From NCBI RefSeq assembly GCF_023100945.1, contig NZ_CP064689.1, forward strand, positions 2,214,001 to 2,278,000: DNA of 64,000 nucleotides, read 5' to 3'. Each line of letters opens with the position of its first letter. Position 1 is the stretch's first letter. This stretch comes from Bradyrhizobium sp. 200. GTDB lineage: Bacteria > Pseudomonadota > Alphaproteobacteria > Rhizobiales > Xanthobacteraceae. Below, piece by piece: positions 41,655-64,000 of this stretch. The translations under genes and the position numbers were made by a program. The notes beneath the pieces are model-generated. The model did no database searches. It was not told the DNA's origin and worked only from the letters and a program-made list of their open reading frames with translations.

Positions 41655-42206
41655 CTTGCTCGGTTGTGGCGGCCTTGTCCCCGTGGACTTGGCGAGCGTG
41701 ATCTTGGGATCTTCGATTAGACCCGCAATCCTCCCGCAGGTGACCCGATCTCGATCGCCACTTCTCTGAAACGCGCACCACTGCCCGATGCGCGCAAACG
41801 CCTCATCGAGAATCCCCCATCGCACTACATTGCCGATCATTCCTGACGCGAAGCTGACGAACGTCCTCGACGAGGTGTGCGTCAGCGAATTAAATCCGTC
41901 ACAAATTTTCAAGTACGCTTTCGCGCGCCCCGCGTGTCAAACGCGGGAACCAAAGGCGCATGTTGCGATTACTCCAAGCTTGAGCAGCCCGGGGCTCGAG
42001 CGGATCGAAAAATACTCTCATGTCTGCGGACGAATGATCTTAGTCTCTCCACGATTGATAGACAGAGTGATCGAGCGACGATGTCGCTTTGTGAAATTGG
42101 TTGTTATCGTGATTGTCCGCAACTCCGCACTGCCATTCGACCCGGTCTTCGCAATCCGGCGCTCGGCTGAGGGGACCTGCATTGTTTCCGGTGGGAGTTG
42201 CGCCGA
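41655..42206. other. Intergenic stretch before the sensor kinase
   Basis: About 550 bases without a supported gene. Contains a GTCAGCTTCGCGTCAGG on the minus strand near 41850, half of a tts-like motif pointing away from any gene; not annotated as a site. Promoter of the kinase gene presumably lies here. Confidence 0.4.
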
Positions 42207-43886
42207 ATGTTGATCGAAACTTCAGCGCCGCGGATCGTGCATCAAGCGAGCGATTCCGTTGGGCGATCCAAAATCCTGATTGCCGACGATGATCTAGAGA
42301 ATCTGATTGCGCTCAATGCGATCCTGTCGGCTCCTGACCGCGAGATCATCCAGGCGCGATCCGGATGGGAGGTGCTGAGCCGCGCTCGTCAGGCCGACTT
42401 TGCATGTATTGTTCTTGATGCGCGCATGTCTGATCTTGATGGGTTTCAAGTAGCCACACGCTTGAAGGCGGATCAACGCACTTCACGGATTCCCATTACT
42501 GTCATCGCGGCTCACGGCCATGATGAACTACACATCACAAGCGGTCACGGCTCCGGCGCGATCGACTACGTCTTCAAGCCGATCAATCCAAAGGTTCTCC
42601 GCTCGAAGGTCGATATCCTCGTCGATCTTTATCGAAAGACCGAAGAAGTACGCAGGCTTGCCGAGCAGGAAAAGCGGCTGCTCCTGGAAAACCTCCGCAT
42701 TCAGAAGGAAAAGCTCGCTGCCGAGCAACGGCTGCGCGACCGCGAGCAGCATCAATCACTCGTGTTGCAGTCGTTGCCGATTGCGCTTTACACGGCAGCC
42801 GTCGGCACGGGTTTGCGACGCTTGCGGTTCACCAATGACAGCATACAGCGCCTGTCGGGCTTCTCAAGTTCGGATTTCCTGAGACAGCCGAATCTGTGGG
42901 AAGCCAGATTGAGTCCCGAAGAGCACGGCCGGGTGATCCAGGCTTTTGCGGAGATCGAAAAGGTCGGCTCCGCGAGCATCGAGTATCGCTGGCGTTGCGC
43001 GGACGGCACTGAAAAATACGTCTTTGATCATGCAGTGCTGAGCGAGAGTCACAAAGACGGCAGCCGCGAGCTCGTTGGCTTCTGGCTCGATGTCAGCGAC
43101 AGAAAATCCCTCGAGACGGGGTTGCTCCACGCCAGCAAGCTGGAGGCGGTCGGCCGCCTTACCGGCGGTATCGTTCACGACTTCAGGAACATGCTGAGCG
43201 TGGTGATCGGCAACCTCGATCTGCTTCATCTGCTTATTCGCGACAATGGCGGTGCCTGCCGTCGTCTCCGCTCGGCGCTCGAAGGGGCGCAGACATGCGC
43301 GGAACTGACCAGCCGCCTGGTCACGTTCGTGCGCCGTCGCTCGATCGAGACGGATGTCGTCGATGTGGTCGAAACCGTCGAATCGATCATGGACCTGCTG
43401 GCGTGCGCGCTCGGCGCCAACATTCAGATCCGCACGAACTATGACAAGGACTGCTGGCCTGTTTGCGTCGACCGGCCGCAGCTCGAAGCCGCCATCGTCA
43501 ATCTTGCGATCAATGCGCGCGATGCGATGCCGGGTGGCGGCGAGCTGAGCATTTGCGCAGAGAATGTTCGTCACACTTCGGATCACAGAGGTCTTCAGGT
43601 TCCGCAGCCAGGCGAATATGTGCGCATCACCGTGAGCGATACCGGTATCGGCATGTCGGCCGAGGTGGTGGAGCAGATCTTCGAGCCGTTCTTCACGACA
43701 AAACACGACGGCAAAGGAAGCGGCCTCGGTCTCAGCATGGTCAGGCATTTCGCCAGGCAGTCGAATGGCGACGTCACGGTGCAAAGTGTTCCCGGCAGTG
43801 GAACCCAAATCTGCCTCGATCTTCCGCGCGCGCGATTGGAGGCCCCGGAAGAAATCGAGCAGACACTGCTTGACCTATCCGCATGA
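42207..43886 (+). CDS. Hybrid sensor histidine kinase (receiver-PAS-kinase)
   Basis: A 559-residue cytoplasmic signalling protein. Receiver domain at about residues 20-145 (ILIADDDLENL; phospho-acceptor D71 in CIVLDARMSDLDG; later K in VFKPINPK). A helical linker is followed by a PAS domain (about 185-305), then the dimerisation/phosphotransfer helix with H323 (GGIVHDFRNMLSVV) and a HATPase_c domain (NLAINARDAMPGGG, VSDTGIGM, KGSGLGLSM). No membrane segments, so the signal is probably intracellular. The ATG at 42207 has GGGAG 9 bases upstream. It may act with the response regulator at 44112, though about 225 bases separate them. Confidence 0.85.
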   Translation: MLIETSAPRIVHQASDSVGRSKILIADDDLENLIALNAILSAPDREIIQARSGWEVLSRARQADFACIVLDARMSDLDGFQVATRLKADQRTSRIPITVIAAHGHDELHITSGHGSGAIDYVFKPINPKVLRSKVDILVDLYRKTEEVRRLAEQEKRLLLENLRIQKEKLAAEQRLRDREQHQSLVLQSLPIALYTAAVGTGLRRLRFTNDSIQRLSGFSSSDFLRQPNLWEARLSPEEHGRVIQAFAEIEKVGSASIEYRWRCADGTEKYVFDHAVLSESHKDGSRELVGFWLDVSDRKSLETGLLHASKLEAVGRLTGGIVHDFRNMLSVVIGNLDLLHLLIRDNGGACRRLRSALEGAQTCAELTSRLVTFVRRRSIETDVVDVVETVESIMDLLACALGANIQIRTNYDKDCWPVCVDRPQLEAAIVNLAINARDAMPGGGELSICAENVRHTSDHRGLQVPQPGEYVRITVSDTGIGMSAEVVEQIFEPFFTTKHDGKGSGLGLSMVRHFARQSNGDVTVQSVPGSGTQICLDLPRARLEAPEEIEQTLLDLSA

Positions 43887-44111
43887 CAGACGACCGCTGA
43901 AAGCATGCCAGTTGATCTCGCCCCGATGTCTTCATCAGGACGTCACTCAAAAAAGGTTCAACGCACCCGAATGCTGAGCGCGTACGTTCGGGGCACAACC
44001 GCACAAGCAACAGCACGCATCGTCGCGCGAATACTGCGTGTTCAGTTGTAATCGAGTGCCTGGTTGTCGAACCGGCCGATGCGGCGCGGCAGTGTCTTGG
44101 GAGGACAAGAG

Positions 44112-44846
44112 ATGCGGGTGCTCCTGGTCGAGGACGAGCCGAAGGTCGCTGCCGTAATTTCCGATATCCTGAAATTCAACGGCTTCACGGCAGATTCGGT
44201 CGGCACCCTGGAGGACGCATCGGAATCCGTCGCGGTCGTGACCTATGATGCGATCCTGCTGGATCGCAAATTGCCCGACGGGGATGGGCTCCATTGGCTT
44301 CGCCATCGGCGACGGTCGGGATGGCCGATACCTGCGCTGATCCTGACGGCCGAAATGGATAGTGTCGACGATCGCGTCGAAGGTCTGAATGCCGGCGCCG
44401 ACGATTACATCCTGAAGCCCGTCAATATGGATGAATTGATCGCGCGACTGCGCGCCGTGTTGCGGCGGCCCACCACCGCGTTGGGACCAGTAATGCGCGC
44501 CGGCAATGTGGAGTTCGATCCGGCCGGACGGCAAGTGTGGGTCAATGGAATCTCGGTCAAGGTGCCGCGTCGCGAAATCTGTTTGCTCGAAGTGCTGATG
44601 CGCCGGTTTGGCCGCGTGGTTCCGAAGTCAGCACTGGAAGAGAGTCTGTTCAGCTATGATAGCGAAGTCTCCTCCAATGCGTTGGAGGTCGGCATCTATC
44701 GGCTGCGGACTCACCTTTCGAAATCGGGAGCGGCGGTTTCCATCAGAACGGACCGCGGCATCGGCTACATTCTCGAGCTCGCACACCCGACCGCTTCCGA
44801 CACGAAGCAAGCGAGTGGCAACAGCTCAGAGGTTTCCCGCGCCTGA
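44112..44846 (+). CDS. OmpR-family response regulator, possible TtsI-like T3SS activator
   Basis: A 244-residue two-component regulator: receiver (MRVLLVEDEPKVAA; phospho-acceptor D51 in AILLDRKLPDGDG; K in DDYILKPVN) and a C-terminal winged helix (VPRREICLLEVLM, then RLRTHLSK and RTDRGIGYIL). Start at 44112 with GGGAGGA 5 to 7 bases upstream. It lies between a sensor kinase and the T3SS genes. TtsI, which activates tts-box promoters in rhizobia, is an OmpR-class regulator, so this protein is a candidate for that role; the evidence is position and class only. Confidence 0.8.
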   Translation: MRVLLVEDEPKVAAVISDILKFNGFTADSVGTLEDASESVAVVTYDAILLDRKLPDGDGLHWLRHRRRSGWPIPALILTAEMDSVDDRVEGLNAGADDYILKPVNMDELIARLRAVLRRPTTALGPVMRAGNVEFDPAGRQVWVNGISVKVPRREICLLEVLMRRFGRVVPKSALEESLFSYDSEVSSNALEVGIYRLRTHLSKSGAAVSIRTDRGIGYILELAHPTASDTKQASGNSSEVSRA

Positions 44847-45140: not shown

Positions 45141-46583
45141 ATGGTGATGAAGCGTCGACCTTCAAGAGCGTTATTGCTGTGCGTACTTCTTGGCGCTTCC
45201 GGCAGCGAGACATTGGCGGCCGAACAGCCGACCGTGCGGATAGTTCCCTTGCGCAAGCCGGCGATGCAAGACACCGCGGCCGCAGCAGTCGATCGCGGGC
45301 AAATTCGTCTGAATGTTTCGCGGGGCCAGACGATAAGGCTGTCGCAGCCGGCCAAGACGATTTTCATCGCCGATCCTGCCATCGCCGACATCCAGGCGCC
45401 GTCCAACGACGCCGCTTTTGTCTTCGGCAAGAAGCCCGGCCGAACGAGCTTCTTCGCGCTCGGCGACAATCAGGAGGCAATCGCCGAATACGAAGTCATT
45501 GTCACCCAGCCGATCAACGACTTGCGCGAAATGCTCCGCAGCGAGGTCGGCGATTATGCGATCCAAGTGTCCTACACGCCAAACGGTGCGGTGTTAAGCG
45601 GCACCGTGCCCAATGCCGCCCTGGCGGAGAGTGCAAAATCCATCACGACGCAGTTCCTGGGGCCGGGTGCCATCATCACCAACAAGCTGCGCGTTGCCGG
45701 TGCCTTGCAGGTGAATCTCCAGGTCCGCGTCGCGGAAGTCGCCAGAAATGTCGCCAAGGAATTCGGCTTCAATCTCAATGCGACCGCCGAGACGGGAAAT
45801 TTCCGTTTTGGTTTTGTGAATGGCCGATCTGCCGTCGGTCCGGCGGGACAAATCATCCGATCGCCAACAGGAGCCGGCTCGGCATTTTTGGGCTTTGGCG
45901 CTGGCGGCACCAACATCTCCGCCGTGCTCGATGCGCTCGCGGCCGAAGGCCTGGTTTCCATTCTGGCGGAACCGAACCTCACGGCGGTCTCCGGGGAGCC
46001 GGCAAGCTTTCTCGCGGGCGGCGAGTTTCCGATACCGGTCGCGCAGGGGCTGGACCGCTTCAGCGTCGAGTTCAAGCGTTTCGGCGTCAGCCTTGAATTC
46101 GTCCCGACGGTTCTTGCAGGTGAAATGGTCAGCGTTCGCGTGAAACCGGAAGTCAGCGACATTTCCAGTCGCGGCCAGGTCCAGATCAATGGCTTTACCA
46201 TCCCCGCGCTTGCGACGCGGCGCGCGGATACGGTGGTTGAGCTCGCCAGCGGGCAAAGCTTTGCGATCGGCGGTCTGATCCGCAAAGGTTTCAGCACCGA
46301 CATCTCGACGTTTCCCTGGCTGGGCGATATCCCGGTGCTCGGCGCGCTGTTCCGCTCGAGCAACTTCCAGAAAGACGAAACCGAGCTCGTCATCATCGTT
46401 ACGCCCTACATCGTGCGGGCGGCCGTCAGCGCGACGCAAACGCAGGCGCCTACCGATCGTGTCGCGCCGCCGTCCGATGTCGACCGTGTCTTTCTGAACA
46501 GGGTTGCGTCACCGCCGCCCGGTCGTCAGGCGCCCAAGGCCAAGGTGACACGACCGCTCCAGGATGGGTTCATTCTCGAATGA
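45141..46583 (+). CDS. Tad/Flp pilus-type outer-membrane secretin (CpaC-like)
   Basis: A 480-residue exported secretin. A signal peptide (RALLLCVLLGASGSETLAA) precedes an N-terminal pilus-type domain (LNVSRGQTIRLSQPAKTIFI, then GRTSFFALGD), a BON-like segment (about 130-200) and the secretin core (VSILAEPNLTAVSGEPASF; FLAGGEFPIPVAQ; VELASGQSFAIGGLIRK; WLGDIPVLGALFRS; ELVIIVTPYIVR). The domain order is that of CpaC/RcpA, not of RhcC2 or PulD. The next gene (CpaD-like) overlaps by ATGA, so the two are coupled. No other Tad genes (ATPase, prepilin, prepilin peptidase) are present. It probably supplies the outer-membrane ring for the adjoining T3SS, an inference from position. Confidence 0.8.
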   Translation: MVMKRRPSRALLLCVLLGASGSETLAAEQPTVRIVPLRKPAMQDTAAAAVDRGQIRLNVSRGQTIRLSQPAKTIFIADPAIADIQAPSNDAAFVFGKKPGRTSFFALGDNQEAIAEYEVIVTQPINDLREMLRSEVGDYAIQVSYTPNGAVLSGTVPNAALAESAKSITTQFLGPGAIITNKLRVAGALQVNLQVRVAEVARNVAKEFGFNLNATAETGNFRFGFVNGRSAVGPAGQIIRSPTGAGSAFLGFGAGGTNISAVLDALAAEGLVSILAEPNLTAVSGEPASFLAGGEFPIPVAQGLDRFSVEFKRFGVSLEFVPTVLAGEMVSVRVKPEVSDISSRGQVQINGFTIPALATRRADTVVELASGQSFAIGGLIRKGFSTDISTFPWLGDIPVLGALFRSSNFQKDETELVIIVTPYIVRAAVSATQTQAPTDRVAPPSDVDRVFLNRVASPPPGRQAPKAKVTRPLQDGFILE

Positions 46584-47278
46584 CAAAGAGAACCAGGATG
46601 CGCACGACGATCATGTTCCTCGCCGCTGGCCTGCTTACGCCGCAGCTCGCCGTCGGTCAGACCTATATCGAGACGCCGCCGACTATTCTGGTCGAACCAG
46701 CACCGCATACTCTTCTGCTTTCCAGCGGCTCGGGCGGCGCCCTGACGTCGGCAGACCGGCGCCGGCTGGAAGACTTCATATACACTGCCAGCCATGGCCG
46801 GCTCGATGCCATCCATGTGGACGTCATCGGGATCGATCCGCGCGCACGCTACGCGGTGACACGAAGCACGATCCGGATGGGCGTCACGCCCTTCAAGGTG
46901 AAGGAAATCAACGCGCCGGCCGACGAGCGCTACCGCTTCGCAATTCGCGTCGTTGCCGTGCGCTATACAGCGCTCGCGCCGGGATGTCCCTCGCTGGAGA
47001 TCACGGCGTCGCCGAACGACAATCACTTCGAACCGACGCTCGGCTGTTCGAACCGTGCGAACCTCGCTGCCACGGTCAACGATCCGAGGGATCTGCTCGT
47101 AAGCTCCGCGGTGCCTCCGTCCGATGGAGATCGGGCAGCGATTCCAGTGACGCGCTATCGTTCGTTCAGCGGCAATGCGGCGGGCGGCCTCCGGCCTTAC
47201 GGAAGCGGCGTGACCGCTCCAGCCAGCATACCGCCGGTCGACCCTGGCGCGGCACCGGCAGGAACCACGGTGCGGTAG
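46580..47278 (+). CDS. CpaD-like Tad pilus assembly protein
   Basis: A 232-residue exported protein with a signal peptide (MRTTIMFLAAGLLTPQLAVG). The C-terminal half carries the CpaD signature: CPSLEITASPNDNHFEP, then LGCSNRANLAATVNDPRDLL. Typical CpaD proteins are lipoproteins; no lipobox cysteine is seen here. The start overlaps the secretin stop by four bases. In Tad systems CpaD acts with the secretin at the outer membrane. Convergent with sctU, 76 bases away. Confidence 0.7.
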   Translation: MTKRTRMRTTIMFLAAGLLTPQLAVGQTYIETPPTILVEPAPHTLLLSSGSGGALTSADRRRLEDFIYTASHGRLDAIHVDVIGIDPRARYAVTRSTIRMGVTPFKVKEINAPADERYRFAIRVVAVRYTALAPGCPSLEITASPNDNHFEPTLGCSNRANLAATVNDPRDLLVSSAVPPSDGDRAAIPVTRYRSFSGNAAGGLRPYGSGVTAPASIPPVDPGAAPAGTTVR

Positions 47279-47354
47279 GTCTTTTAGCGTCTTCGAACGA
47301 AAAACCTGCCCGGACTTGAGATTCGGTTTTGAAGCAATCAGAGCCGATATTGCC

Positions 47355-48395
47355 CTAGACGAGGCCTGCGGCCAGCATCGCGCGGGCAACGCGTTCGAAC
47401 TGCTGGCTTGCGATCGCGCTTCCAAGCCGTGGCTTGCGCCGCAGGCTGCGAGCGAGCGCCGCTTCCGCCACCACCGGGATGTTGTTGGATGCGGCAGCAT
47501 CCAGAAGCGACTGGACGGCCGCCCCCTTTGCGCGGCAGACGACGATCGGTACGGAAGTTTCTCCCCGAACGTAGCGAAGTCCGACGACCACGCCTTCACT
47601 GCGCACGAACAGCGTGGCGTGACGGGGGCCGACCGATGGCTCCTGGGCCTGCTCCTGGCGCTGGCGACGGCGCGTGCTGCGCACCAGCGGGTTGCCTTCC
47701 TGATCCTGCAGCTCGCGCTTACCCTCCGTCACCGTCATGCGCATCTCGCGCAGGAACAGCCAACGTTGCAGGAGAATGTCGATCAGGCCAGTCGCCAGAA
47801 GGAAGGCAATGCCGATACCGAGCAGCAGTTGCGCCATGCTGCCGAACACGAAGCCGATGCAGCCTTCGCCGCAAATCGGCAGCCGGACCAGCGTGTTCAG
47901 CGTGCCTGCGACGACGATGATCAGGGTGGACCCGAGCAGAACGCCCTTGACGAGGGTCTTCGCAAGCTCGATCCAGTTCTTGAGAGCAAAGATGCGCTTG
48001 AATCCGCTGAACGGATTGATGTGCTCCAGATTGGGGATCATTGGCGCAAGCGAGAACAGAAAGCCGCGGTTCATGACGACGTTGGCAAGCAGCGCCGCAA
48101 CGACGGCTACCGTCAGCAGCGGCAGGACCGTGCGCCAGCACAGCGCGATCAGCGCCGCGCCCAGTTGCGGCAACGCCACCTGAAACGGCTCGTTTTGCAC
48201 ATCGACGGCGAGGACCAGGGCTTCTCGCCAAAGCCCGACGATACTCCCCGAAAACGACCAAAGATATGCGATCGCCGCTGCCGCGCCGACCGCGCTGACG
48301 AAGTCGTGGCTGTGGGCGATCTGGCCCTTCCGGCGCGCGTCCTGAAGCTTCTTCGTCGAAGCCGGGAGCGATTTTTGCTCGCTGGTGTCGCTCAT
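47355..48395 (-). CDS. sctU: T3SS export switch protein SctU (RhcU/FlhB family) lacking NPTH
   Basis: A 346-residue inner-membrane protein of the FlhB/YscU family: four membrane spans (about residues 25-205), a linker (TVTEGKRELQDQEGNP) and a cytoplasmic domain (VVVGLRYVRGETSVPIVVCR, then NIPVVAEAALARSL). Members normally carry an NPTH motif at which the protein cleaves itself to switch substrate class. The aligned position here reads RSEG (VRSEGVVVGLRY; codons at 47593-47604), so the catalytic asparagine, proline and histidine are gone. Start overlaps the sctT stop by ATGA. Last gene of the block. Confidence 0.95.
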   Translation of the reverse strand: MSDTSEQKSLPASTKKLQDARRKGQIAHSHDFVSAVGAAAAIAYLWSFSGSIVGLWREALVLAVDVQNEPFQVALPQLGAALIALCWRTVLPLLTVAVVAALLANVVMNRGFLFSLAPMIPNLEHINPFSGFKRIFALKNWIELAKTLVKGVLLGSTLIIVVAGTLNTLVRLPICGEGCIGFVFGSMAQLLLGIGIAFLLATGLIDILLQRWLFLREMRMTVTEGKRELQDQEGNPLVRSTRRRQRQEQAQEPSVGPRHATLFVRSEGVVVGLRYVRGETSVPIVVCRAKGAAVQSLLDAAASNNIPVVAEAALARSLRRKPRLGSAIASQQFERVARAMLAAGLV

Positions 48396-49210
48396 TGCAG
48401 GAACCGCTCGATCTGGCTCTTGATGCCGTGCGTTCCCGCAAGCTCATCCCGCATGTAGTTCATGAGATATGTCGCGTAGATGCCGATGAAGACAATGAAT
48501 ACCACGTTCTTCAGCGTCGGCGGCAGATCATAGGCGTTAAGTTGCGGGGCGGAACGGCCGATCAGCATCACCGACAGGTCCAGCAGCAGGAACAGCGCGA
48601 TGACCGGACCGCCGACCAACAGCGCGTAGCCAAGGATGTGATCGACGGTCTTGGCGACCGAAAGGGCGCTGTCGAGCGTGAGCCTGGGTGTGAAGCTCGT
48701 CACTGGCCAGATCGCATAGCTGTCGTAGACGGTGCCGGCCAGGACGCGCAGGCCGTCCGCGGCGACGAAGACGGCGATGGCGCTGATACCGAGAAACAGG
48801 CTCAGCGACGACGCCTGCGACCGCGTTGCAGGATCGGTGGCGTCCTCGTTGGTCACGCCACGCTGCTCATCGATCAACTCACCCACCGCCTGAATCGCCC
48901 AGAACGGTACGCCGAACATGAAGCCGATCAGCGCGCCCACCATCAGCTCCTTCATCGCGATCAGCACAAGCTGGGCGCTCTGGTGCGGCCCCAGCGCGCC
49001 GATGCTCTCGGTCGCGTGCCACATCACGGGAAGGCCCAGGGCGAGCGCAAACCCCGAACGGACGATGCTGCCGAGTTCCGCCTTCGTGAACACGGGGAAC
49101 ACCAGCGCGACGCCCAGGGTCCGCAGGGCGGCGATGCCCAGGCCCAGCAATGCCGGCAACGCGCCGTCGATGAACTGCTGAAAGTCCGCCGATGAAAGCA
49201 GCGACGTCAT
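48392..49210 (-). CDS. sctT: T3SS export gate protein SctT (RhcT/FliR family)
   Basis: A 272-residue membrane protein of the FliR/YscT family with six or more membrane spans; recognisable parts are LRTLGVALVFPVFTKAELG, KELMVGALIGFMFGVPFW and GELIDEQRG, and the end PPTLKNVVFIVFIGIYATY. It joins SctR and SctS in the export gate. Sixteen bases separate it from sctS and it overlaps sctU by four. Confidence 0.95.
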   Translation of the reverse strand: MTSLLSSADFQQFIDGALPALLGLGIAALRTLGVALVFPVFTKAELGSIVRSGFALALGLPVMWHATESIGALGPHQSAQLVLIAMKELMVGALIGFMFGVPFWAIQAVGELIDEQRGVTNEDATDPATRSQASSLSLFLGISAIAVFVAADGLRVLAGTVYDSYAIWPVTSFTPRLTLDSALSVAKTVDHILGYALLVGGPVIALFLLLDLSVMLIGRSAPQLNAYDLPPTLKNVVFIVFIGIYATYLMNYMRDELAGTHGIKSQIERFLQ

Positions 49211-54429: not shown

Positions 54430-55308
54430 TCAGGCCGCGCGCTGCGTGATCGTCGGATCGGCGCCTCGATCAGTCGAGGAGGGACGGTTGATGCTTCGCG
54501 GGTCATTTCGGGCGAAGCTGGACACCGGCGATAAGCCGGCATGTGCATGTTGCCCCTGGCGGCGACCGAGCCAGAACGCGAAGGCGCCGGTCAAGAGCAG
54601 CGCGATGAGGCCGGCGAGGGGAAGATAGAGCGCCTGCGACGAACCGCTGCCCGTCCGCGGCGCCATCAGTCCGGCTTGTGTTGCTGCGCCGACCGTCCTT
54701 GACGCCGTGGTGTCGATCGAAGGACGCTCCACCGGAACGAGCACAACCGATACCTTCTCATAGGACAGCCCTTCGATGCTGTTCGCCACCAGCATCTTGA
54801 CATGCGGCAACAATGATTTCAGCGGCGCGCGGGCATCGTGACGAATGAATACCGATGCAGAGGACGGCGTCGCATCCTGGCGCAGCAGGTCGTTCTTCGG
54901 AAGAACCACATGAATTCTCGCCGAAAGAACGCCGTCGATATCGGAGATCGTTCGCGACAGCTCTTCGCTCAACGCGTAGATGAAGCGCGCGCGTTCCTCT
55001 GTCGGTGACGAAATCAGGCCGCTGCTCTTGAATACCTCTCCCATGTTGGTGAATGTCCTGCGCGGCAGGCCGTTTGCCTTGAGAATATCGATCGCCTGCG
55101 CGAGCTGACTTTCCTCGACTTTGATCTGGTTGGTCCCGTCTTTGGCGAACGAGCGCTCGGCAGCGATGCCGTGCTTGTGCAGCAGCGCAATCATATCGTT
55201 CGCTTCACGCTCGCCCAGTTTGGAGTAAAGCTCCGCCTGGCACCCCGCCAAGGTGCAGAACACCAGCGCGAGCGCGGACAGTTTCACCACTTTACGGACG
55301 GCGGTCAT
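54430..55308 (-). CDS. sctJ: T3SS inner ring lipoprotein SctJ (RhcJ/NolT)
   Basis: A 292-residue lipoprotein of the YscJ/PrgK/FliF family. The signal ends in the lipobox LAGC (acyl-cysteine about residue 23). Two ring-building domains follow (YSKLGEREANDMIALLHKHG; RTFTNMGEVFKSSGLISSPT, ALSEELSRTISDIDGVLSAR, IHVVLPKNDLL). One membrane span (LPLAGLIALLLTGAFAFWL) lies near the C terminus with a longer than usual tail of about 45 residues. Confidence 0.95.
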   Translation of the reverse strand: MTAVRKVVKLSALALVFCTLAGCQAELYSKLGEREANDMIALLHKHGIAAERSFAKDGTNQIKVEESQLAQAIDILKANGLPRRTFTNMGEVFKSSGLISSPTEERARFIYALSEELSRTISDIDGVLSARIHVVLPKNDLLRQDATPSSASVFIRHDARAPLKSLLPHVKMLVANSIEGLSYEKVSVVLVPVERPSIDTTASRTVGAATQAGLMAPRTGSGSSQALYLPLAGLIALLLTGAFAFWLGRRQGQHAHAGLSPVSSFARNDPRSINRPSSTDRGADPTITQRAA

Positions 55309-55894: not shown

Positions 55895-55965
55895 GTTTCG
55901 GCTCGGCTTGAAGTTCGAAGAGCTGTTTTCGCATCGCTCACGATGCGGCAAAGGCTATTGAGGCT

Positions 55966-55983
55966 AGCTGACCGGAAAGTGAC
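55966..55983 (-). promoter_or_regulatory. tts-box-like site upstream of sctI
   Basis: On the minus strand: GTCACTTTCCGGTCAGCT, preceded by TTC and followed by AGCCTCAATAG. It matches the site at 56937 in 13 of 18 positions and shares the GTCA and AGCT ends of the rhizobial tts box, target of TtsI. It lies 72 bases before the sctI start. Weaker than the other two sites. Confidence 0.5.
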
Positions 55984-56078: not shown

Positions 56079-56885
56079 ATGACGCCAAGAACGATCCCCG
56101 AGCAGAGTTCCACCGCTTCGCGTGATAAGGAACGCCGTCTTGTTGCACGCCTTGTCGCGGCAAGCCTTGTTGTTGCAGGCCTGGGCGCATCTGCGGCGCT
56201 TCTGCGGCCTTCGACGGTGCTCGCGGCGCAGCTCAAACTGCCGGACAGCACGTATACGTACACGGTTATCAATCAGGATCTGCCGGCAGCGCTTCTGGAA
56301 TTCGGCAGCAACCTCAATATCAAGGTCAATGTGAGTCAGGAGGTGCGCGGCCGTATTCAAGGCCGGCTTCCCGATCTCCCGCCGTTGGCCTTCCTGAACC
56401 GCCTCGCATCACTCTATAATCTTGAGTGGTATTTCGACGGCCAGGTATTGCACGTCACCTCCGCCCGCGAATCGCAAAGCCGGTTGCTTGTTCCGGGCCC
56501 GGTACCGTTCGAACGGCTTGCGTCGACGCTTGCGGCATTCGATGTCGCCGACGAGCGGTATGCCGTGCGGCCGGCTCCGAATACGCAACTGGTGCTGGTC
56601 ACCGGACCGCCGCGATTTGTGGCCTTGGTCGAGCAAACCCTCAATGGATTGATCTCCGAGGAGCAGGCGCGCCCGAAGCCCGCCGAAGCGCGGACAGAGC
56701 CGCAGCCTCCGCGTGATACGGTCCTGACCGTGTTTCGCGGCGCGCAGACGACGGTCCTTCGCAACGGACGGCTGGAAGCGACCTTCGGCTCGAGCGAGTC
56801 CTCCGACGCGCCGGCCGGACGCGAGCAGGCCGGCGGACGTGACGGCGATCCCAATACGCCCGGCCGACGCGGAAATTCGCGCTGA
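56079..56885 (+). CDS. rhcC1: T3SS secretin N-domain protein SctC1 (NolW/RhcC1-like)
   Basis: A 268-residue exported protein (signal about residues 20-50, LVAASLVVAGLGASAALL) with the periplasmic N0 and N1 domains of a secretin (TYTVINQDLPAALLEFGSNL; GRLPDLPPLAFLNRLASLYN; FVALVEQTLNGLI) but no beta-barrel. It is therefore the first half of the split secretin known in rhizobia (NolW/RhcC1). Divergent from sctI, as in nolW-nolB. No second half of the RhcC2 type follows; the only secretin barrel in the window is the CpaC-like one at 45141. Confidence 0.85.
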   Translation: MTPRTIPEQSSTASRDKERRLVARLVAASLVVAGLGASAALLRPSTVLAAQLKLPDSTYTYTVINQDLPAALLEFGSNLNIKVNVSQEVRGRIQGRLPDLPPLAFLNRLASLYNLEWYFDGQVLHVTSARESQSRLLVPGPVPFERLASTLAAFDVADERYAVRPAPNTQLVLVTGPPRFVALVEQTLNGLISEEQARPKPAEARTEPQPPRDTVLTVFRGAQTTVLRNGRLEATFGSSESSDAPAGREQAGGRDGDPNTPGRRGNSR

Positions 56886-56936: not shown

Positions 56937-56957
56937 GTCAGCTTCCCGAAAGCTGAC
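56937..56957 (+). promoter_or_regulatory. tts box upstream of the second T3SS operon
   Basis: Palindrome GTCAGCTT (56937-56944), CCCGA, AAGCTGAC (56950-56957), preceded by CTC and followed by GCTCATAACG. It closely matches my memory of the rhizobial tts-box consensus (GTCAGCTTnTCGAAAGCT). The site lies 159 bases before the first glycine-rich small gene and probably drives the sctD-sctV operon. Confidence 0.7.
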
Positions 56958-57115
56958 GCTCATAACGTCTGCGTCGTGAAGTCTATTGCGAAAAGAAAAT
57001 CGCACGGACCGTTCATCGATCGGCCGCGCGATAGTCCGATCGCATTCAACTCCGCGTATCGTGTCGGCCAGATCGACCGATCGCGCGCCACGATCTGAGC
57101 GAAGGAGAATTCATC

Positions 57116-57899: not shown

Positions 57900-58886
57900 A
57901 TGTCATTGCCGTCCAATTGTCTGACGATGTCAGTCGAGTCCGGGTTGTATGCCGGCTCGTCGCATGCGTTCGTGCCCGGGCGTTACACGATCGGCAGTTC
58001 GATGGACGCCGACATCGTGCTGATGGAGGCGGACGTCGAGCCTCTTCATGCCATGATCGACACCTCGGGACCCGAACTTCAGATCGAGGCGCTGGCTGGC
58101 AGGATTTCGATCGGTCCGCAGAAATATCTCGCAACCGGCGCACGGCAGATTGTTGCCACGCCCCTGCGAATGAATATTGGCGCCGTGCAACTGCATTTCA
58201 GTCGTGCCGGCGATCCGAACCCGCAATCGCAAGGCAGTCTATTCGGCGTTTCGATGCCGCGATCCCGTCTGCTGATGGGCGCAGGCCTGGTCAGCATCGT
58301 CTCGATTGGGCTGATGATGCACTCGCTGGCGGACGTGCCGATCGCGCAGACAGCGGGTGCGCTACACGCCGATCTGCGGCAGACGCTGCTGGCATCGGCG
58401 GCGAACACGACCGACATCCCGCTGGTTACCGTTGCCAGGGCGGCCGTACCGCGCGAGCGGGAAGGTGGTCTCGCCATTCCCGATCTCGCATCCGACACGG
58501 TCAAGGCGGCAGCCGATGCCATGCGGGCGGAGATCGAGCGCATGGGCATCCTGAACGTGGTGGTCGAGCCCGGCGCCGGGATCGTCGCAGCGACCGGGAC
58601 CATCGATCCGAAGGCCGCGGCGCAATGGCAAACCGTGCAAAGGTGGTTCGACGAACGCTTTGAAGGCGATATCACGCTTGTGAACGGTGTCACCGTAAAG
58701 ACGGAAAAAGTGCCGGTGTCGCTGTCGATCGAAGGCGTGTGGCGCGGAGACCATCCTCACCTTCTGATCAGGGGACAGAAATACCTCGAGGGCGCGATGC
58801 TTGATGGTGGCTGGGCGATCGAACGCATCGAGCCCGAGAAAGTCCTGCTGCGGCGCGAGGGGAAGCTCGTCGCGGTTCGTTACTGA
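57900..58886 (+). CDS. sctD: T3SS inner ring protein SctD (Y4yQ-like)
   Basis: A 328-residue protein with a cytoplasmic FHA-like domain (about residues 10-110; VPGRYTIGSSMDADIVLMEA), one membrane span near 123-142 (LLMGAGLVSIVSIGLMMHSL) and a periplasmic part with a BON-like segment (NVVVEPGAGIVAATGTIDP). This layout is that of SctD, the outer of the two inner-membrane rings. Position between the small proteins and sctX corresponds to y4yQ. Confidence 0.8.
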   Translation: MSLPSNCLTMSVESGLYAGSSHAFVPGRYTIGSSMDADIVLMEADVEPLHAMIDTSGPELQIEALAGRISIGPQKYLATGARQIVATPLRMNIGAVQLHFSRAGDPNPQSQGSLFGVSMPRSRLLMGAGLVSIVSIGLMMHSLADVPIAQTAGALHADLRQTLLASAANTTDIPLVTVARAAVPREREGGLAIPDLASDTVKAAADAMRAEIERMGILNVVVEPGAGIVAATGTIDPKAAAQWQTVQRWFDERFEGDITLVNGVTVKTEKVPVSLSIEGVWRGDHPHLLIRGQKYLEGAMLDGGWAIERIEPEKVLLRREGKLVAVRY

Positions 58887-59720: not shown

Positions 59721-61876
59721 TGGAACGACTGAAGACGCTGGTGGCGCGGGCTCCAGGCAGCCCGGATCTGATGATCGCGTTGGTGCTCGTACTCACCGTC
59801 GCCATGATGATTCTGCCGATGCCGCTGCTTCTGGTCGATCTCCTGATCGGCTTCAATCTCGGATTTGCAGTGCTGCTGCTGATGGTGTCGCTCTATGTGT
59901 TGAGCCCGCTCGAGTTCTCGACATTGCCGGGCATCATATTGCTGTCGACGGTGTTCCGGCTGGCGCTGACCATCACCACGACCCGCCTCATTCTCACCCA
60001 GGCCGATGCAGGTGACATCGTCCGGACATTCGGCGAATTTGTCATCGCCGGCAGCGTTCTGGTCGGGCTGGTGGTCTTCCTCATCATTACGGTGGTGCAG
60101 TTCATCGTGATCGCAAAGGGTGCGGAGCGCGTCGCCGAAGTGGGCGCGCGCTTCATTCTCGATGCGCTGCCCGGAAAGCAGATGGCGATCGACGCCGAAC
60201 TACGAAATGGCGATATCGATCAGCCCGAAGCGAGGCGCCGGCGCGGCCGCCTGGAGCGGGAAAGCCAGCTCTATGGCGCGATGGACGGCGCCATGAAGTT
60301 CGTCAAAGGCGACGCTATCGCCGGGCTGGTTGTCATTGCCGTGAACCTGATCGGCGGCATCGCGGTCGGCACGCTGGGCCGCGGCATGCCGCTGGCGCAA
60401 GCCGTGCATGAGTATACGTTGCTGACGATCGGCGATGCGCTGATTTCGCAGATCCCCGCCTTGATGCTTTCGATTACGGCGGCGACCGTCGTCACCCGGG
60501 TCACCGGCGACAGCAAACTGGACCTTGGACGCGATATCGCCAGTCAGCTTTCCGCAGATCGGCGCGCGCTGCGGCTCGCCGCAATCGTCCTGCTTGCTAT
60601 GGGCCTGATCCCCGGCTTTCCGATGGCGGTATTCGCAGTGCTTGCGCTCGCATTCGCCGCGGCCAGCCTGATCGCAGGTACGAGATCGAATGCGGGCGAC
60701 GAAGATACGGCCGTCGGCGGAAGCGACGTTGGGAAGGCAGCCGAAGCGCGCGCGGGCGCGCCACCGCGTACGCGAGAGATGCGCCAGGCTGCGCCTGCTG
60801 AAGCGCCGCCGGTCGTCGTGCTGCTGTCGGACGATCTGCGGTCGATCGTGGAGACGCAGAAGTTGCGGTCGAAGATTGATAAATCGCGTACCGATTTGGC
60901 CGATGCGCTGGGCATTCTGATGCCGGACGTCGGCATTGTTTTCGATCCGGCACTCGGCACATCACAATTTCGCATCGAGGTGGAGGGCGTGCCGGTTGAG
61001 GAAAGTCGCGTCGACCCGCGGCGGCTACTGTTGTGTGACGATCCCGTGAATTTGGAACTCGCCGGCATCCCAGTGCAGACGGCTGGCGATGCCCGTACCG
61101 ATCAGGTCTGGATCGATACCGCCCATGAGCGTTCGCTGGTGGCGGCCGGCATCGGCTACCAGGACTGCGCGGATGTCATTGCGACCCGTGCGCGAGACGT
61201 GCTCGCGCGCAACGCTGCACGATTTGTCGGCATCCAGGAAACGAGGGCGCTGCTCACGCGGCTGGAGGGCCGATATGGCGATCTTGTCAAGGAAGTGACA
61301 CGTGCCACGCCGGTGCAGAAGGTGGCCGAGGTGCTGCGGCGCCTGGTCGACGAGGGTGTTTCGGTCCGCAATCCACGGCTGGTTCTCGAAGCGTTTGCCG
61401 AATGGGGCGAAAGGGAGCCGAACGTCGTGCTCTTGACGGAATACGTGCGCGCTGCGTTAAAGCGACAAATCTGTCACAGCTATGCAAACGCCCACAGGGT
61501 GGTGCCCGCCTACATGGTCGAGCGCGCTGCGGAGGACATCATCCGCAGCGCCGTCCGCGACACCGCTGTGGGTCCCTATCTCGTTCTGGAGGACAAGGTT
61601 TCGGAAGGACTCCTCGAAAGGGTTCGCCGCATCGGGGCGAATGCGCACTCGGATCGCAACCGGCCGGTGATTTTGACGTCGATGGATATCCGCCGCTTCG
61701 TGCGCGGATTTCTCGTGCGCAACGGTCTGGACATCCCGGTTCTTTCGTATCAAGAGTTGGCGAGCGACTTTACCATTCAACCGGTCGGTACGATCGGGCT
61801 CGCCGGCAACTTTGGCTCCGATTCAGCTCCGCAATCTGGATCGTTTCCGAAAGGTGTCGTGCCGGCCGTCGGCTGA
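59717..61876 (+). CDS. sctV: T3SS export apparatus protein SctV (RhcV/FlhA family)
   Basis: A 719-residue protein of the FHIPEP family: about eight membrane spans in the first 320 residues, with the signature LSTVFRLALTITTTRLIL and the cytoplasmic loop GERVAEVGARF-type segment (VAEVGARFILDALPGKQMAI), then a large cytoplasmic domain (about residues 360-719). The latter forms the nonameric ring that receives chaperone-bound substrates. The end is slightly longer than usual (DSAPQSGSFPKG). Confidence 0.95.
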   Translation: MMERLKTLVARAPGSPDLMIALVLVLTVAMMILPMPLLLVDLLIGFNLGFAVLLLMVSLYVLSPLEFSTLPGIILLSTVFRLALTITTTRLILTQADAGDIVRTFGEFVIAGSVLVGLVVFLIITVVQFIVIAKGAERVAEVGARFILDALPGKQMAIDAELRNGDIDQPEARRRRGRLERESQLYGAMDGAMKFVKGDAIAGLVVIAVNLIGGIAVGTLGRGMPLAQAVHEYTLLTIGDALISQIPALMLSITAATVVTRVTGDSKLDLGRDIASQLSADRRALRLAAIVLLAMGLIPGFPMAVFAVLALAFAAASLIAGTRSNAGDEDTAVGGSDVGKAAEARAGAPPRTREMRQAAPAEAPPVVVLLSDDLRSIVETQKLRSKIDKSRTDLADALGILMPDVGIVFDPALGTSQFRIEVEGVPVEESRVDPRRLLLCDDPVNLELAGIPVQTAGDARTDQVWIDTAHERSLVAAGIGYQDCADVIATRARDVLARNAARFVGIQETRALLTRLEGRYGDLVKEVTRATPVQKVAEVLRRLVDEGVSVRNPRLVLEAFAEWGEREPNVVLLTEYVRAALKRQICHSYANAHRVVPAYMVERAAEDIIRSAVRDTAVGPYLVLEDKVSEGLLERVRRIGANAHSDRNRPVILTSMDIRRFVRGFLVRNGLDIPVLSYQELASDFTIQPVGTIGLAGNFGSDSAPQSGSFPKGVVPAVG

Positions 61877-61907
61877 CCAGCATGGCTGGATCGCCGAGAG
61901 GTGCGTG

Positions 61908-62543
61908 TTGAGTAACGGTCCGCAGCCGTCGGGATTTCGCGCGGCATCGAAATGGTTGCGTTCGCTCGCGGCACCGTTGCTCGCTCTCGGTGTCAGCGCA
62001 TGCTTCGGAGCCGGAGCGCAGCTCGGCACCGTCGCCGGATCATCCGATCCTCCGACCGCCAGTGCCGATCTCGATAATGCGGCCCTGGCGCGGCTGGCGC
62101 AGGCCGCCGAGAGCAGCGGAAACGCACTCAACACAGCAAACATCTACCGGCGGATCGCGGAACGTCAGCCGTCCGTAGCGCAGCCCAGGATCGATCTCGG
62201 GCGGGCGCTCATGCGCAATGGCGACTTCAATGGGGCCGACGCCGCGTTTCGCCAGGCGCTTGCGATAGCTCCCGGCAATGTCGACGGCGAGGTCGGTCTC
62301 GCGCAGGTCCTGCTCGCGCGACAGCAGCATGCAGAAGCCCTCACGGCGTTCGGTGCGATTCTCGAACGGTATCCGCAAAACGTCAAAGCGCTCAATGGCG
62401 CCGGAATAGCATTGGACGCACTCGGCCGGCACCAGGAGGCGCAGGAACGCTATAACCGTGCGCTCGCGGTTGCACCTGAGGATCGCGCGGCGCGCAACAA
62501 TCTAGCGCTCTCGAAAACGCTGGGAACCAGCAGCATTCGATAG
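61908..62543 (+). CDS. TPR lipoprotein (TadD/Y4yS-like)
   Basis: A 211-residue lipoprotein: signal ending in the lipobox VSAC, then about four TPR units (AEALTAFGAILERYPQNVKA, LNGAGIALDALGRHQEAQER, YNRALAVAPEDRAARNNLA). A TTG at 61908 with GAGAGG 6 bases upstream is preferred over a GTG three bases earlier. Position after sctV corresponds to the TPR gene y4yS of rhizobia; the layout is also that of the Tad pilus protein TadD. A pilotin-like helper for the secretin is a reasonable guess. Confidence 0.7.
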   Translation: MSNGPQPSGFRAASKWLRSLAAPLLALGVSACFGAGAQLGTVAGSSDPPTASADLDNAALARLAQAAESSGNALNTANIYRRIAERQPSVAQPRIDLGRALMRNGDFNGADAAFRQALAIAPGNVDGEVGLAQVLLARQQHAEALTAFGAILERYPQNVKALNGAGIALDALGRHQEAQERYNRALAVAPEDRAARNNLALSKTLGTSSIR

Positions 62544-62592: not shown

Positions 62593-62610
62593 GTCAGCTT
62601 CGTATCAGCT
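62593..62610 (+). promoter_or_regulatory. tts-box-like site upstream of a secreted-protein candidate
   Basis: GTCAGCTTCGTATCAGCT followed by TTGGACGCTAGCC. It has the GTCAGCTT and AGCT halves in the same 18-base spacing as the site at 56937, and a downstream CTAG. It lies 112 bases before the ATG at 62722. Confidence 0.55.
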
Positions 62611-62721
62611 TTGGACGCTAGCCTGCCTGCGATTGCCACGGTCGCCGGTCGACGCTTGATGGCGGCCGAGGCCGGCCCCGGCGAGCATTGATCGAACACT
62701 CCGCATACGCACGGAGCGAAC

Positions 62722-64000
62722 ATGTCGCCACGAGCCAGTGCTGTCGCCGCCGATCGGCGCGACGTACCCCAGAGCGAAAATCGACCGGATGCGTCCGGCG
62801 CAGCGTTTCAGGACGCCATCGACGCTGCGCGGGCGCCCTCGGATGCGTCGAGGCCAGTCAATTCCAACAACGATGCCGTGGTCCGGAGCGCGAACGACAA
62901 TTCGACAGACGTCGCTCAACCGGCGCAGGACGTCTCGCCGCAGCGGCAGCAACAAATTGCAGATTGGGTCGAGCGGCAGTCGGACCCCAGCGGAGGTTTT
63001 CTCGGGATCGGCCAGACATCGACGACCGAGAAGGTCATCGGCGCGCTGCGCGGCCAGTCCGAGCTCGGAACGCTCGATTAGCAACAGCAGCGGTTGCTGA
63101 TGGATCAGGTGCTCGATCGCTGGACTGCGGGCCGCGGCGAGGGGCCCGGCGGCGCCGCCCGTCTTTCCTGCTCGCTGGACGACACGCCCGAACTGCGCGT
63201 GGGTCGTCGCCGAGCGCACGGCACTGGAGGCGGCCGAGCTTGCGCGCGATCCGGCGGTCGCCACTGCGCGATCCGGCGAGCAGTGGCAGCGCCGGATGAC
63301 GGCTGCGTCCTATGCCGTCTCCGCTATCACCGCCCTGTCCGGTCCGGCGGGGAGCGCGCCTGCGAATCTCGAGCCGTTGCGGAACATGTTGACGGGGCTG
63401 CGGCCTGAGGATGCAGCCGGCTTCGCGCGTGCGCTCTCAACTGACCCGTCGATGGCCATCGCGGGGCAAATGACCGCCTCGATGCGCGAGCGCGCATTGT
63501 CGGCGCTCAATCAGGGACCTCATTCAGAAGCGGCCAGCGCATTCGTACAGAACGCGTTTGCTGGAACATCGGCGATCGACTACGGCACGGTTCCGGTCCT
63601 GCGCCGGACGATGGCGCATGCGCTCGCTCGCGAGTGGCATCCCGACGATCCCGCACGACAGCGTGCGGAGGCAGAGCGGCTTGGCGGCGTTCTCGAAGCC
63701 CGGCAGGGACGCGAACTGCTGGGCTTGCAGGACGCCGACAAGGCGCCGCTTGCGGCGCGTGTCAATGCGCTCGCGACCATCCGCATGAATCCGGCGATTA
63801 GCGCCGATACGCTGCGGCAGACCGACGATCCCTGGACCAATCGTGCGATCGTCGAACCGCAGGCGCAGGCATCCGCCCAACGCCTGCTTTCCGCGCGTGG
63901 CGACACGCCACAGATTCTGCGCGGAACGGATCTCGACAACACCATCGGCTTCGCGATGGGCATGCCGCCGGCGCTTCCGCCCGGTGCAAGCTTCGCGCAA
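62722..64000 (+). pseudogene. T3SS-secreted protein candidate, interrupted by amber and frameshift, runs off the window
   Basis: ATG at 62722 with GGAG 5 bases upstream. The first frame reads MSPRASAVAADRRDV, a serine/alanine/asparagine-rich N terminus like a T3SS signal, then FLGIGQTSTTEKVIGAL and an in-frame TAG at 63079-63081. The same frame continues in protein-like fashion (QQQRLLMDQVLDRWTAGRG). Near 63200 the sensible frame shifts by one base (WVVAERTALEAAELARD, later NLEPLRNMLTGLRPEDAAGF) and stays open to the window end. One long secreted protein, now broken, is the simplest reading. Two separate genes cannot be excluded. No enzyme motif recognised. Confidence 0.55.

What the first reader, a model, noticed from the sequence alone, without database searches (positions are those of the whole stretch)
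45141..47278. A Tad-pilus-type secretin and CpaD-like protein appear to supply the outer-membrane ring of a rhizobial T3SS
The T3SS has the split-secretin N-half (NolW/RhcC1-like, 56079-56885), but no RhcC2 follows. The only secretin barrel in the window has CpaC domain order and is translationally coupled to a CpaD-like gene. No other Tad genes are present, and the TPR lipoprotein at 61908 is TadD-like. This suggests a T3SS whose outer-membrane complex was recruited from a Tad pilus. I cannot tell whether the arrangement is already described in other Bradyrhizobium strains, or whether an RhcC2 lies outside the window.
Basis: partly seen in the sequence, partly recalled or inferred. Interest (0 to 1): 0.85.

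Follow-up and report, generated by a model that had tools for sequence, protein, structure and literature searches.

The report
Known Tad-derived secretin, RhcC2, in rhizobia
The outer-membrane ring gene that looked like a stray pilus part is RhcC2, the usual ring gene of this family of bacterial injection machines; its origin from a pilus system is already in print, but this copy belongs to an unusually deep branch.

Summary
The pair is real: 45141-46583 encodes a CpaC-architecture secretin, 46580-47278 a CpaD-family protein. But "no RhcC2" is wrong: this gene is RhcC2. It sits between ttsI and the CpaD-like gene as in Sinorhizobium fredii NGR234, and all 16 Rhc-I RhcC2 rows sampled form one clade (100/100). 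The Tad origin of RhcC2, with RhcC1 as remnant of the old secretin, was published in 2012; the CpaD-like lipoprotein and TadD-like Y4yS were noted by 2015. The resident tad locus at 1.00 Mb keeps its own cpaC and cpaD. So the headline is known.

Not seen in the papers I searched: of 13 proteins of a Skermanella tad locus, exactly CpaC, CpaD and TadD match the window. The window's system, with one close relative, is sister to the other sampled Rhc-I systems in three trees. Its TtsI keeps a phosphorylation pocket and lies beside a histidine kinase, with no nod box found and nodA 4.5 Mb or more away. Rhc-I and Rhc-II RhcC2 may be separate Tad captures: one clade is rejected on full length (AU p 0.004) but not on the barrel half (p 0.30).

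The parts
42198..43886 (+). hybrid histidine kinase (receiver, PAS, HisKA, HATPase) directly upstream of the ttsI homologue
   Evidence: Pfam; 85% identical in relative L013 (part at the locus edge); 26% match in L081, none in 13 other Rhc-I loci
44064..44846 (+). TtsI homologue (response regulator, OmpR type)
   Evidence: 48-54% to TtsI of 12 other Rhc-I loci; receiver pocket intact here and in L013
45141..46583 (+). RhcC2: Tad-type secretin, outer-membrane ring of the T3SS
   Evidence: Pfam; 58-64% to 14 Rhc-I RhcC2 and 94% to L013; tree
46580..47278 (+). CpaD-family protein (Y4xK equivalent); signal-peptide-like N terminus without the lipobox cysteine of its relatives
   Evidence: PF09476; tree; N termini
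47355..48395 (-). RhcU (SctU)
   Evidence: PF01312
49518..50174 (-). RhcR (SctR)
   Evidence: PF00813
51776..53131 (-). RhcN (SctN ATPase)
   Evidence: PF00006, PF18269; tree
54430..55308 (-). RhcJ (SctJ)
   Evidence: PF01514
55349..55951 (-). NolB
   Evidence: PF17398; tts-box-like site with one mismatch at 55956-55983 on the same strand
56079..56885 (+). RhcC1 (NolW): N-terminal remnant of the older SctC secretin
   Evidence: TIGR02516 positions 2-138 of 463; 51-61% to RhcC1 of Rhc-I loci
56937..56964 (+). tts-box-like site upstream of the rhcD-rhcV segment
   Evidence: exact match to the printed consensus; 2 exact matches in the window, mean 0.05 in 100 shuffles
57900..58886 (+). RhcD (SctD, Y4yQ)
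   Evidence: PF23893, PF16697
59717..61876 (+). RhcV (SctV)
   Evidence: PF00771
61812..62543 (+).
   Evidence: TPR families; 39% to Skermanella TadD; VSAC lipobox read from the translation

Best explanation
This is the outer-membrane part of a rhizobial (Rhc-I-like) type III secretion system. RhcC2 (45141-46583), a secretin of Tad-pilus descent, forms the outer-membrane channel. RhcC1 (56079-56885), the leftover N-terminal part of the original T3SS secretin, links it to the inner ring through SctD. The TadD-like Y4yS (61812-62543) pilots the secretin to the outer membrane, and the CpaD-like protein (46580-47278) is a periplasmic secretin partner. Shown here: gene identities, gene order, ancestry and co-occurrence. 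Taken from papers on other rhizobia: Y4yS affects RhcC2 levels in membranes of Mesorhizobium loti; the RhcC1 linker role is those authors' proposal. Inferred: the role of the CpaD-like protein, and that this system works.
For: Domains; order ttsI-rhcC2-y4xK as in NGR234, Mesorhizobium amorphae and Bradyrhizobium guangdongense; 16 of 16 RhcC2 rows and 16 of 16 T3SS CpaD rows are single clades; in 36 same-genus genomes the 16 with a strong RhcC1 match (over 140 bits) are the same 16 with a strong CpaD-like match (over 90 bits); nearest solved structure is the Tad secretin RcpA, far ahead of the T3SS secretin InvG (1.5e-52 against 4.7e-7); 3 of 13 tad proteins match the window, those of the outer-membrane part. 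Literature passages: PMC3459982, PMC4311626, PMC3973906; PMC4500985 whole text.
Against: No expression or interaction data for this locus. The window's CpaD-like protein lacks the lipobox cysteine that 14 of the 16 rows have (L013 has a poor PAAC), so it may not be a lipoprotein here. G010's CpaD-like match holds one in-frame stop. G033 has a weaker RhcC1 (113 bits) without a CpaD-like match, and G031 an RhcC1 remnant; a Bradyrhizobium japonicum plasmid T3SS (L082) shows no RhcC1, RhcC2 or CpaD match in the 33 kb fetched. TPR similarity of Y4yS is weak evidence because TPRs are common.
Confidence: 0.93

Rival explanations
1. The pair belongs to a Tad pilus of this strain and lies beside the T3SS by chance.
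For: CpaC and CpaD families by Pfam. A second resident tad-like locus at 4.35 Mb matched only cpaB, cpaC and tadZ of the Skermanella tad proteins in its 20 kb, with a CpaD by Pfam, so a distant contribution cannot be excluded from sequence alone.
Against: Both resident tad-like loci have their own cpaC and cpaD; the pair clusters with T3SS rows and not with Bradyrhizobium Tad rows in both trees; its gene order next to ttsI recurs in other genera.
Confidence: 0.03
2. This strain made its own fresh recruitment from a resident Bradyrhizobium tad locus.
For: Same families are present in the genome. An AU test holding Rhc-I RhcC2 together with Bradyrhizobium Tad CpaC does not reject at 0.05 (p 0.0528, log-likelihood 47.6 lower).
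Against: The window gene is inside the RhcC2 clade shared with Sinorhizobium, Mesorhizobium and Bosea (100/100), so the capture predates this strain; identity to the three resident CpaC-like proteins is 35-38% against 51% to Skermanella CpaC.
Confidence: 0.02
3. RhcC1 and RhcC2 are simply the two halves of one split SctC gene, as older papers say (PMC3973906, passage).
For: RhcC1 matches the first part of the SctC model and RhcC2 has the barrel.
Against: RhcC2 has its own N-terminal pilus and BON domains and is nearest to Tad secretins; Abby and Rocha argued the same in 2012.
Confidence: 0.02

Closest known systems
RhcC2 / Y4xJ of Rhc-I T3SS (S. fredii NGR234 pNGR234a)
   Same: Same domain order, neighbours (ttsI before, CpaD-like after), 58% identity
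   Different: Window and L013 form the sister branch of the 14 other RhcC2 rows
CpaC/RcpA, secretin of Tad pili
   Same: Domain architecture, adjacent cpaD, best structural-database match RcpA
   Different: No CpaF, TadB/C, CpaB, TadZ or Flp match in the window; lies in a T3SS locus
Y4xK / mlr8762 CpaD-like lipoprotein of Rhc-I T3SS
   Same: Position after rhcC2, CpaD family
   Different: Window copy lacks the lipobox cysteine
Y4yS of M. loti, TadD-like candidate pilotin
   Same: TPR repeats, lipobox, position after rhcV
   Different: Window copy is closer to Azospirillaceae TadD (39%) than own-genome Tad proteins are (26%); no tree was made
Rhc-II RhcC2 (S. fredii plasmid b, Phyllobacterium, Rhizobium johnstonii)
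   Same: Tad-type secretin in a T3SS cluster, with a TPR gene beside it
   Different: Not in one clade with Rhc-I RhcC2 in the full-length tree

Membership tests
RhcC2 (Tad-derived secretin of Rhc-I T3SS) | C-terminal secretin barrel with CpaC-type N-terminal pilus and BON domains | tested here: met
RhcC2 (Tad-derived secretin of Rhc-I T3SS) | in one clade with RhcC2 of NGR234 and other rhizobia | tested here: met
   16 of 16 rows, 100/100
RhcC2 (Tad-derived secretin of Rhc-I T3SS) | encoded between ttsI and y4xK in a T3SS locus that also has rhcC1 | tested here: met
RhcC2 (Tad-derived secretin of Rhc-I T3SS) | needed for type III secretion | not testable with these tools
   needs a mutant
Tad pilus system | CpaF ATPase, TadB/TadC platform, Flp pilin, CpaB in the locus | tested here: not met
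   10 of 13 Skermanella tad proteins have no match in the window
Y4xK CpaD-like lipoprotein | CpaD family and position after rhcC2 | tested here: met
Y4xK CpaD-like lipoprotein | lipobox cysteine | tested here: not met
   no Cys at the end of the signal-peptide-like region of the window protein; 14 of 16 rows have [GA]GC (read by eye)
Classical Rhc-I regulation (nod box - ttsI - tts boxes) | nod box before ttsI | tested here: not met
   best 25 of 40 consensus letters and not near ttsI; consensus recalled from memory
Classical Rhc-I regulation (nod box - ttsI - tts boxes) | tts boxes before operons | tested here: met
   2 exact matches in the window against 0.05 expected, one before the rhcD segment; a one-mismatch site before nolB; none before rhcC2

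The most novel reading that the evidence does not exclude
Rhizobial T3SSs captured Tad outer-membrane modules at least twice, once in the Rhc-I line (from a tad locus of the Azospirillaceae/Acetobacteraceae type, as a set of secretin, CpaD and TadD) and once in the Rhc-II line. The window's system is a surviving early branch of the Rhc-I line that keeps an older regulatory state: a phosphorylatable TtsI with its own histidine kinase, outside nod control.
Probability: 0.3. Interest if true: 0.55.

Novelty: new member of a known kind. Interest (0 to 1): 0.27.

Why it matters
The headline does not change the field: secretin replacement in Rhc T3SSs is known. The locus is useful as a deep-branching reference for two open points: how RhcC1 joins a Tad-type ring to a T3SS inner ring, and how T3SS control passed from a two-component system to nod-gene control. 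If Tad modules were captured twice, then a Tad secretin with CpaD and TadD would be a ready-made plug-in for T3SSs rather than a single accident.

Tried and rejected
Considered and rejected: an RhcC2 elsewhere in the genome (5 secretins; none of the other four is in the RhcC2 clade or close to it); a tad cluster lacking cpaC. The ORFs 47316-48458 and 48395-49195 on the plus strand gave no family, and the first covers RhcU on the other strand.

Results against the finer readings. The CpaD tree (63 rows; two of 65 dropped, one short, one weak) does not place T3SS CpaD with Azospirillaceae CpaD but, with weak support, next to Sphingosinicella (92/49), so a common donor of secretin and CpaD is not shown. 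Holding Rhc-I RhcC2 with Bradyrhizobium Tad: p 0.0528. Two captures: Rhc-I plus Rhc-II as one clade is rejected on full length (p 0.0038; 0.0030 without row L074) and on the N-terminal part (0.030) but not on the barrel part (0.302); long branches are present. That reduced tree used 32 of the 72 rows plus four Rhc-II rows, chosen by me; the 66-row tree dropped 8 long or odd rows and fell back to the quick method. No TadD/Y4yS tree was made because TPR repeats align poorly. No structure prediction was run. Rhc-III (R. etli) was not examined.

Full report
What is there. The window (G000:C1:2214001-2278000, a single 9.49 Mb contig) carries a T3SS locus from about 44 to 62.5 kb. The pair named in the finding is as described: a 480-residue secretin with pilus N-terminal, BON and barrel domains, and a 232-residue CpaD-family protein, overlapping at ATGA. 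RhcU, R, Q, N, L, J, NolB, RhcC1, RhcD and RhcV are present by family matches, and a TPR protein follows RhcV.

What it is. In NGR234 the order is response regulator (y4xI, ttsI), secretin, CpaD-family protein, and a review passage names the secretin between ttsI and y4xK as rhcC2 (PMC3973906, passages; also PMC3574062, passages). The window has the same order with 58% identity to the NGR234 secretin and 48% to its TtsI. The same order recurs in Mesorhizobium amorphae and in Bradyrhizobium guangdongense, and the Bosea vestrisii plasmid locus has matching TtsI, secretin and CpaD-like stretches in that order. In a tree of 72 secretins the 16 T3SS rows are one clade (100/100), next to Azospirillaceae and Acetobacteraceae Tad secretins (24 rows, 95/90), while the nine Bradyrhizobium CpaC-like rows, three of them from this genome, form a separate clade (100/100). 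So the window gene is RhcC2.

What is known. Abby and Rocha 2012 (PMC3459982, passages) state that RhcC2 branches with Tad secretins, that RhcC1 is the N-terminal remnant of the original T3SS secretin, and that this is a partial homologous gene replacement. Mercante and colleagues 2015 (PMC4311626, passages) mention the CpaD-like lipoprotein mlr8762 and propose Y4yS, with TadD-like features, as pilotin of RhcC2. Gazi 2015 (PMC4500985, whole text) sums this up and says subgroup II lacks y4yS. A search for y4xK found 6 papers, 3 of them apparently unrelated, and a search for at least 3 of CpaD, type III secretion, rhizobi and rhcC2 found 16; I read passages of only some of these. The supplementary texts of Abby and Rocha were not read.

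Distribution. In 36 same-genus genomes including this one, 16 have an RhcC1 match over 140 bits, and the same 16 have a CpaD-like match over 90 bits. The rest of the tally: over all 60 genomes searched RhcC1 matched in 19 (including G033 at 113 bits, a remnant in G031, and one same-order genome at 33 bits), and the CpaD query matched in 41, mostly ordinary Tad CpaD at under 40 bits. In G001 the two matches lie on different contigs. G010's CpaD-like frame holds one stop.

A deep branch. The window and one relative (L013, in genome G028, which also has an ordinary Rhc-I locus, L014) form the sister group of the other 14 RhcC2 rows (starred), of the other 14 CpaD rows (93/83) and of 12 other Rhc-I RhcN rows (99 and 95 by SH-aLRT, quick method). 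The window CpaD-like protein lacks the lipobox cysteine found in 14 of 16 rows.

Module capture. Of 13 proteins of the Skermanella rosea tad locus, the window matches CpaC, CpaD and TadD only. RhcC2 and Y4yS are closer to the Skermanella and Azospirillum tad proteins (51 and 49%; 39 and 36%) than to this genome's Tad proteins (35-38%; 26%). For the CpaD-like protein the difference is small (34 and 30% against 29%) and its tree does not support that donor. An unnamed same-class genome (G206) has the highest identity outside T3SS loci (52%), in a locus with cpaB, C, D, tadZ and cpaF matches. One search covered 190 genomes and 43 matched at 1e-75, the window's own included; 30 were turned into loci, one of them the window itself.

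Two captures? S. fredii and Phyllobacterium sp. 628 clusters (L083, L084) have the secretin, a short CpaD-like frame (4.9e-9 and 1.5e-10) and a TPR frame side by side; Phyllobacterium T1293 and R. johnstonii show secretin, a small hypothetical gene and a TPR gene by annotation (the small genes were not tested). Labels Rhc-II for these follow S. fredii NGR234 plasmid b, which has a 98% identical secretin; for Phyllobacterium and R. johnstonii the label is mine, from their secretins grouping with it. Their secretins do not join Rhc-I RhcC2. A single clade is rejected on full length (p 0.0038), not on the barrel half (p 0.302). I treat two captures as open.

Regulation. The TtsI here and in L013 keeps the acidic pair, the aspartate and the lysine of a receiver; of 12 other rows 11 lack the acidic pair and one is cut off there, and 9 of the 14 rows have glutamate in place of the aspartate. 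A hybrid histidine kinase lies directly upstream, 85% identical in L013 and absent beside ttsI in 13 other loci except for a 26% match in L081. No nod box was found; the two nodA genes lie at 6.79 and 7.29 Mb. An exact tts-box match lies before the rhcD segment and a one-mismatch site before nolB, none before rhcC2. The genome has two FHIPEP genes, this one and one at 7.57 Mb that is probably flagellar (not tested).

Verdict. What remains of interest is the early-branching system with its own kinase and the open question of one or two Tad captures.

Noticed in passing
window 42198-44846: Histidine kinase directly upstream of a TtsI homologue with an intact phosphorylation pocket, no nod box found, nodA genes 4.5 Mb or more away: possibly a two-component version of TtsI control.
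   Followed up: partly
L083 5422-8055; L084 1602-4208: In Rhc-II-type clusters a Tad-type secretin, a short CpaD-like frame and a TPR frame lie side by side, although a commentary says subgroup II lacks y4yS.
   Followed up: partly
L082 12968-28398: A Bradyrhizobium japonicum plasmid T3SS cluster shows no RhcC1, RhcC2 or CpaD match in the 33 kb fetched.
   Followed up: no
window 41831-41858 (-) and 62593-62620 (+): Further tts-box-like sites: an exact match at 41831 on the minus strand, and a one-mismatch site at 62593 ahead of an unassigned frame 62688-63299.
   Followed up: no
G000:C1:4336001-4356000 (L025): A second tad-like locus of this genome matched only cpaB, cpaC and tadZ of the Skermanella tad proteins plus a CpaD by Pfam; it may be partial. 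A third CpaC-like secretin lies at 4.99 Mb.
   Followed up: no
G028 C207 and C66 (L013, L014): One related genome carries both this deep-branching T3SS and an ordinary Rhc-I T3SS.
   Followed up: partly
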